Positions 41,636 to 41,879 of a DNA stretch of 64,000 nucleotides are shown here, in pieces (the stretch's first letter is position 1; every line of letters begins with the position of its first letter). The notes under the pieces were generated by a model. It was given only the letters and a program-made list of their open reading frames with translations, had not been told where the DNA came from and made no database searches. Position numbers and translations under genes: made by a program. The stretch lies in contig NC_135552.1 of assembly GCF_964340395.1 (NCBI RefSeq), positions 5,136,701 through 5,200,700 of the forward strand. Reading direction: 5' to 3'. Origin of the DNA: Glandiceps talaboti (Eukaryota > Hemichordata > Enteropneusta > Spengelidae).

Positions 41636-41754
41636 TCTCTCATATATATATATATATAGTAAATAGTTTCAAACTCGTAGAATAGAGTGCTCGATGCTTG
41701 GGTAAGCAGGGCGGGAATAATCAAAGTAATGTTGGTTGGAACTTGAGGTGCTTA

Positions 41755-41797
41755 GTTGTTACTCCGAGTTTCACGCTCAAAGCGATCATCAGACAAC
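41755..41797 (-). ncRNA. Hammerhead-ribozyme-like motif (family 1, copy b', minus strand)
   Basis: Exact mirror of the plus-strand copy at 41799-41841. The two motifs abut at the 5' ends of stem I. Read through, a transcript from either strand would contain one motif and the antisense of the other and would fold into a long perfect hairpin instead of two ribozymes. Confidence 0.72.
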
Positions 41798-41798
41798 T

Positions 41799-41841
41799 GT
41801 TGTCTGATGATCGCTTTGAGCGTGAAACTCGGAGTAACAAC
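41799..41841 (+). ncRNA. Hammerhead-ribozyme-like motif (family 1, copy b, plus strand)
   Basis: Stem I GTTGT (41799-41803) pairs with ACAAC (41837-41841); core CTGATGA (41804-41810); stem II CGC-TTTGA-GCG flanked by U-U; GAAA (41824-41827); stem III ACT-CGG-AGT; triplet GTA (41834-41836). The fold is complete apart from the non-canonical stem II base. Confidence 0.75.
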
Positions 41842-41879
41842 TAAGCACCTCAAGTTCCAACCAACATTACTTTGATTAT

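What the first reader, a model, noticed from the sequence alone, without database searches (positions are those of the whole stretch)
41717..41879. Perfect 163-bp palindrome of two head-to-head hammerheads
81-bp arms are exact complements around one central base, and each arm carries a complete hammerhead-like motif plus 38 nt of flank. The junction lies exactly at the 5' end of stem I, so the breakpoint respects the ribozyme boundary. This suggests formation from a cleaved or template-switched RNA (a 5' end created at stem I) instead of random inversion.
Basis: partly seen in the sequence, partly recalled or inferred. Interest (0 to 1): 0.85.

Follow-up and report, generated by a model that had tools for sequence, protein, structure and literature searches.

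The report
Palindrome made by a copying retrotransposon
The perfect palindrome is the footprint of a Penelope-like jumping element whose short, hammerhead-bearing RNA end was copied once onto each strand of a TA-repeat target; its kind is known, but in the copies sampled from this genome nearly every such pair joins one long-ended and one short-ended copy, a clue to how these elements jump.

Summary
In detail: 41717-41879 is an exact palindrome, 81-bp arms around one base, with a complete minimal type I hammerhead core on each arm. It is not a one-off. [quoted passage not shown] a sister family has 1003. In coordinate-ordered samples close pairs are mostly head-to-head, usually between (TA)n or similar microsatellites. 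In 66 of 68 classifiable tight pairs one arm carries the optional PLE 'tail' and the other does not (62 of 64 after merging look-alikes). The outer limits of the window palindrome are this long/short 3'-end difference. Arms of a pair share source variants. The junction at stem I is the commonest 5' end of copies, but it is not the hammerhead cut, which lies 38 nt inside. Best reading: both target strands primed reverse transcription of one source RNA, from two adjacent start sites; both cDNAs ran to the RNA 5' end (probably the transcription start: a TATA box lies about 31 nt upstream in two of three families) and were joined. A known kind of structure with a new regularity.

The parts
41657..41798 (-). 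Tailed arm of the family A pair: A0 (41798), body 41797-41718, tail 41717-41657
   Evidence: Alignment to family A reference, positions -1 to 140 (L116); tail matched without mismatch at 41669-41717
41799..41878 (+). Tail-less arm of the family A pair, ending at the inner RT start site, followed by (TA)n
   Evidence: Alignment positions 1 to 80 (L116)
41755..41797 (-). Hammerhead core of the tailed arm
   Evidence: Core and helices by regular expression
41799..41841 (+). Hammerhead core of the tail-less arm; predicted cut 41836/41837
   Evidence: Core and helices by regular expression; cut position from the known hammerhead rule (after H17), not tested
41877..41982 (.). (TA)n on the right of the family A pair, taken as target-site remnant
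   Evidence: a shorter (TA)n lies at about 41641-41659
41983..42124 (-). Tailed arm of the family B pair, with hammerhead-like motif 42081-42124 (C in place of U4)
42125..42183 (+). Tail-less arm of the family B pair, 5' truncated inside the motif, followed by (TA)n 42182-42275
42276..42405 (-). Tailed arm of the family C pair, rearranged inside (see 42354-42392)
   Evidence: tail matched at 42305-42328
42406..42478 (+). Tail-less arm of the family C pair with hammerhead 42406-42448, followed by (TA)n
9028..9226 (+). Unpaired tail-less family C end with about 125 nt of upstream sequence, hammerhead 9153-9195
   Evidence: (L009)

Best explanation
[quoted passage not shown] Step 1 (inferred; shown in vitro by others for an Anolis PLE): the element enzyme cuts both strands of the target and each 3' end primes reverse transcription inside the element RNA. 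Step 2 (shown here as a genomic pattern): the two strands use two different start sites about 60 nt apart, one giving a tailed and the other a tail-less arm, and both arms copy the same source sequence. Step 3 (ends shown, cause inferred): both cDNAs run through the uncut hammerhead to the 5' end of the RNA, most likely the transcription start just upstream of stem I. Step 4 (inferred): the two cDNA ends are joined bluntly or by short microhomology, giving a head-to-head palindrome whose centre is the RNA 5' end and whose outer limit is the inner start site.
For: Tight head-to-head pairs (gap up to 20): family A 31 of 31 classifiable (33 in all) and family C 35 of 37 (45 in all) have one tailed and one tail-less arm; after merging look-alikes 28 of 28 and 34 of 36, not reached in 20,000 permutations per family. 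The clear family B pairs L228, L234, L237 and the three window pairs are mixed too. Arms of a pair differ at 0.70 sites against 3.07 between loci (A, 23 pairs) and 1.41 against 3.53 (C, 17 pairs). 5' ends cluster at stem I. Orientation: 26 of 29 neighbouring family A hits under 2 kb are head-to-head, none tail-to-tail. TATA box about 31 nt upstream of A0 in 6 of 8 (A) and 18 of 19 (C) distinct long-copy upstream sequences. PLE layout in L245: YIG-bearing frame, pLTR, hammerhead, open frame from the ATG in CUGAUGA. Literature: the Anolis PLE protein cuts and extends both strands and starts at two adjacent internal sites that match the genomic tail (PMC11167929).
Against: Family B has no TATA box at that place yet some of its ends fall at the same point (8 of 26 arms at 0..7), so a transcription start is not proved. 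Two of 37 tight family C pairs are tailed/tailed (L184, L221), and 10 tight pairs could not be classified. Pfam and NCBIfam do not name the proteins; GIY-YIG only at E 0.011, below cut-off. Shared variants could also come from later conversion between arms. No RNA data.
Confidence: 0.8

Rival explanations
1. Same PLE insertion, but the boundary is a reverse-transcriptase stop: the enzyme falls off just after copying the folded, protein-bound hammerhead, while the RNA itself goes on upstream.
For: The boundary coincides with the ribozyme edge in all three families, including family B without a TATA box.
Against: Ends peak at A0/G1 over a few bases rather than being spread, and families A and C have a TATA box at the usual distance. 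Longer copies show that the enzyme can pass (22 of 113 family A and 13 of 149 family C arms start more than 60 nt upstream).
Confidence: 0.25
2. Self-cleaved RNA: the hammerhead cuts the transcript and reverse transcription runs off the new 5' end, giving the junction (closest to the first reader).
For: A few family A arms start at the predicted cut, 39/40: 5 of 98 arms, from L077, L080 (both arms of one pair), L143 and L144, the last two being look-alike neighbours.
Against: The window junction and the main peak lie 38 nt upstream of the cut; family C has 0 of 138 at 39/40. In vitro, hammerhead mutants of the Anolis PLE did not change insertion.
Confidence: 0.05
3. Snap-back (self-priming) of one cDNA or antisense RNA, as proposed for rotifer Penelope palindromes.
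For: Palindromes at inverted PLE junctions have been read this way (PMC3846280). A 19-bp palindrome at stem III inside the family C pair (42354-42392) looks like local snap-back.
Against: Snap-back copying predicts equal 3' ends on both arms; 66 of 68 classifiable tight pairs have unequal ends.
Confidence: 0.07
4. Chance DNA inversion, replication template switch, or assembly artefact at this locus.
For: Perfect short palindromes can arise in these ways; long reads could not be examined.
Against: The pattern recurs at dozens of sampled loci with one orientation, one preferred boundary and unequal 3' ends.
Confidence: 0.03

Closest known systems
Penelope elements with inverted pLTRs and optional tail, Adineta vaga (PMC3846280; passages seen)
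   Same: Direct and inverted pLTRs, head-to-head palindromes at the inverted junction, a short tail on one of the inverted pLTRs
   Different: There the tail is called optional and palindromes are put down to self-priming; here nearly every tight pair has exactly one tail, most copies are only the pLTR end, and a hammerhead is present (the word hammerhead does not occur in that text)
PAc, Poseidon of Anolis carolinensis (PMC11167929; outline and parts 1-2 of 4 seen)
   Same: Hammerhead at the pLTR-ORF junction with the start codon at stem II, two adjacent internal RT start sites matching the tail, AT-rich targets, both strands cut and extended, tandem copies
   Different: That work is in vitro and reports no difference in start site between strands; here genomic pairs show one start site per arm. 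Different sequence and host
Minimal type I hammerheads of PLEs (PMC6155905, PMC7229834; passages seen; the original 2014 paper is not held)
   Same: Minimal core with a very short helix III, placed in PLE terminal repeats
   Different: Opposed pairs at a palindrome centre; not named by Rfam here
Retrozymes of animals and plants (PMC7229834 passages seen; PMC4918200 search listing only)
   Same: Hammerhead-bearing retroelement repeats in high copy number
   Different: Pairs here are inverted, and long copies continue upstream into a PLE-like coding region

Membership tests
Penelope-like elements (GIY-YIG-bearing) | One ORF with telomerase-like RT and C-terminal GIY-YIG endonuclease | tested here: inconclusive
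   Frames with YRDD and YIG motifs upstream of the hammerhead; motif recognition is recalled. Pfam GIY-YIG E 0.011, below cut-off; nothing in Pfam for a 796-aa frame, only unrelated weak NCBIfam rows; no relevant PDB relative
Penelope-like elements (GIY-YIG-bearing) | pLTRs with tandem or partial-tandem copies | tested here: met
   RT matches at 2526-bp steps on C11; L245 shows frame end, pLTR and next frame start
Penelope-like elements (GIY-YIG-bearing) | Inverted pLTR copies and an optional tail | tested here: met
Penelope-like elements (GIY-YIG-bearing) | Hammerhead at the pLTR-ORF junction | tested here: met
   L245: hammerhead at 904, frame open from the ATG in CUGAUGA
Penelope-like elements (GIY-YIG-bearing) | AT-rich target | tested here: met
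   Flanks are mostly (TA)n, some (TACA)n or (TATG)n
Hammerhead ribozyme, minimal type I | Invariant core and three helices | tested here: met
   (7 places in the window, one with C at position 4); stem I sequence differs between families with pairing kept
Hammerhead ribozyme, minimal type I | Recognised by curated covariance models; folds as such alone | tested here: not met
   No Rfam hammerhead match; the minimum-energy fold of four isolated cores is not the hammerhead. PLE hammerheads are minimal and one is protein-assisted, so this does not exclude it
Hammerhead ribozyme, minimal type I | Self-cleavage | not testable with these tools
   Needs a bench assay
Retrozyme | Hammerheads as direct repeats around a short non-coding body (recalled, with PMC6155905 passages) | tested here: not met
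   Close pairs are mostly inverted head-to-head; longer copies carry PLE-like coding frames

The most novel reading that the evidence does not exclude
Each insertion is made by an obligately asymmetric two-strand reaction on a single RNA molecule: one protomer starts at the inner site on one target strand, its partner at the outer site on the other strand. Most genomic copies are then run-off products of the first 80 or 140 nt of the mRNA, and long copies arise only from tandem read-through RNA. Tailed arms that stop soon after passing the inner site (5 of 32 at 59-73 in family A, 7 of 44 at 51-61 in family C) would be collisions on the shared template; that last point has no fair control, because equally short tail-less arms could not be detected.
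Probability: 0.45. Interest if true: 0.75.

Novelty: new member of a known kind. Interest (0 to 1): 0.55.

Why it matters
How Penelope-like elements complete an insertion is open; the authors of the in vitro study say that the later steps remain to be validated. The pattern here, one tailed and one tail-less arm copied from the same source and joined head-to-head at the RNA 5' edge, says that both target strands prime synthesis in one event and that the two start sites are used as a pair. It also accounts for the many copies that are little more than a hammerhead, without invoking self-cleavage, and gives a direct prediction for single-molecule assays.

Tried and rejected
Rfam gave, in permissive mode, mainly microRNA-type matches to the long hairpins, all below gathering score; dropped as palindrome artefacts. 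Hammerhead cleavage as the source of the junction: rejected on position and counts. Snap-back of one cDNA: rejected as the main route because of the unequal ends. MITE or foldback DNA transposon: rejected because the outer ends differ between arms and longer copies carry PLE-like frames. A family A reference with 1500 nt upstream was poor because that stretch holds another inverted copy and (TA)n; redid it with 345 nt. Pfam, NCBIfam and PDB searches did not confirm the RT or the endonuclease. Structure prediction and collection scans were not used.

Limits of the counts. Samples were the first 100 listed of 278 (A) and of 1003 (C) exact hits, and the first 20 clusters of 197 hits (B), in coordinate order, so they come from contigs C1-C8 (none listed on C3), C1-C2, and C1, C2 and C4. 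An exact motif was required in at least one arm of each region, which hides copies truncated downstream of it. Arms whose 3' end fits neither site were left unclassified (3 of 113 in A, 10 of 149 in C); an arm reaching more than 8 nt into the tail counted as tailed. With the stricter first rule family C gave 33 mixed and 2 tailed/tailed of 50 head-to-head pairs at any gap, 15 unclassified. Arms cut by the edge of the stretch (15 and 11) were left out of 5'-end counts. Look-alike loci (such as L166/L167, L163/L190, L143/L144) are in the raw counts; one search merges pairs with equal ends and equal first 40 nt, which may also merge independent ones.

Full report
What is there. The stretch 41717-41879 is an exact palindrome with arms of 81 bp around T41798. 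Each arm carries a complete minimal type I hammerhead core pointing outward, so the two motifs stand head-to-head at their 5' ends. Beside it lie two further head-to-head pairs, of families B and C, each followed by (TA)n.

What the element is. Longer copies run upstream of the hammerhead into frames with a YRDD motif and a YIG motif, or pieces of them. A tandem copy (L245) shows, in order, the YIG-bearing frame, about 200 nt of pLTR with a TATA box, the hammerhead, and an open frame that contains the ATG of CUGAUGA and runs on past both 3'-end sites. RT matches repeat every 2526 bp there. This is the layout described for Penelope-like elements, in particular PAc of Anolis (PMC11167929; outline and parts 1-2 of 4 seen). 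The domain libraries did not confirm it: the best row is GIY-YIG at E 0.011, below cut-off, and a 796-aa open frame gave nothing in Pfam. The assignment therefore rests on architecture and on motifs that I recall.

The hammerhead. A scan for core plus helices found 245 hits over the loci held by then and the window, overlapping loci counted more than once, and 0 in 20 block-shuffled windows. Stem I differs between families with pairing kept (GTTGT/ACAAC, GTCGT/ACGGC, TACGC/GCGTA, TACAC/GTGTA). Against it: Rfam does not call it, the isolated RNAs do not fold into it as minimum-energy structures, and most family B copies have C in place of U4. PLE hammerheads are described as minimal (PMC6155905, passages), and the Anolis one needed protein to cut.

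Sampling. A 21-nt motif that starts at position 47 of family A has 278 exact hits; the first 100 were analysed as 76 regions. A 34-nt family C motif has 1003 hits; the first 100 gave 79 regions. A 26-nt family B motif has 197 hits; 20 regions were read. Of 29 neighbouring family A hits under 2 kb apart, 26 are head-to-head and 3 direct; none is tail-to-tail. Five of those 26 have the spacing of the window pair (93), the commonest value.

Unequal ends. Copies mostly end at one of two sites: tail-less, or about 60 nt further on with the tail. With gaps up to 20 nt, family A has 33 head-to-head pairs, 31 classifiable, and 31 of 31 are one tailed plus one tail-less; family C has 45, 37 classifiable, of which 35 are mixed, 2 tailed/tailed (L184, L221) and 0 tail-less/tail-less. 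At gaps up to 100 nt family A has 32 of 32 mixed (34 in all) and family C 37 mixed and 5 tailed/tailed of 42 (50 in all); three of the five have gaps of 29, 52 and 88 nt and may be separate insertions. After merging look-alikes the tight count is 62 of 64, and none of 20,000 permutations in either family reached its value. The clear family B pairs L228, L234 and L237 and all three window pairs are mixed as well. In the window palindrome the left arm is tailed and the right is not, and this difference sets the outer limits of the perfect match.

Same source. Arms of one pair differ at 0.70 sites on average, against 3.07 between loci, in family A (23 pairs; each pair shares one of the two alternative variants 68C or 44T), and at 1.41 against 3.53 in family C (17 pairs). 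One RNA, RNAs from one locus, or later conversion between arms would each do this. The unequal ends argue for coupled use of the two start sites.

Where the junction falls. Ends at -1..+4 around the first base of stem I make up 51 of 84 (A) and 69 of 114 (C) of the ends in the visible range, against 4.7 and 6.8 expected if uniform. In family B, 8 of 26 arms end at 0..7, 13 are long and 5 end further in. The predicted cut site has 5 of 98 (A) and 0 of 138 (C). A TATA box starts about 31 nt upstream of A0 in 6 of 8 (A) and 18 of 19 (C) distinct upstream sequences; the family B sequence has none there. So the boundary is probably the RNA 5' end, with an enzyme stop at the ribozyme edge as the live rival. 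Several junctions share a few bases between arms (for example in L082, L084, L126 and L172), as expected if cDNA ends are joined by microhomology.

Prior knowledge. Inverted pLTRs, head-to-head palindromes and a tail on one of the inverted pLTRs are described for rotifer Penelope (PMC3846280, passages), where self-priming is proposed. The Anolis enzyme cuts and extends both strands and starts at two adjacent internal sites, without a noted difference between strands. The listings of searches and the passages read showed no statement of the unequal-ends rule or of junctions clustering at the hammerhead edge; I read only parts of five papers and two key papers are not held, so this is weak evidence of novelty.

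Verdict. The palindrome is real and is a new member of a known kind. What deserves attention is the regularity across copies, which makes the two-strand, two-start-site model of PLE insertion testable.

Noticed in passing
window 38172-38211 (+) and 42731-42770 (+): Two copies of a further hammerhead family (stem I TACGC/GCGTA, core CUGAAGA); whether they form pairs was not examined.
   Followed up: no
window 42354-42392: A 19-bp-arm palindrome centred on hammerhead stem III inside the family C pair, which looks like local snap-back followed by a return to the template.
   Followed up: partly
G000 C11:14111842-14117556: Three RT matches at 2526-bp steps, a tandem PLE array; part of it was read as L245.
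   Followed up: partly
window 10061-10789, 13311-14171, 16087-16995 (-); 25569-26666, 32845-33870, 35804-36862, 55782-58064 (+): Open frames with AIG1 GTPase (two), SCAN/zinc-knuckle, rhodopsin-type 7TM receptor (three) and NACHT matches in Pfam.
   Followed up: no
families A and C, tailed arms in pairs: A minor cluster of 5' ends of tailed arms just past the inner start site (59-73 in A, 51-61 in C).
   Followed up: partly
window 41811-41823 and homologues: Stem II of the window, B and C hammerheads opens with U opposite U where the commonest family A version has A-U.
   Followed up: no
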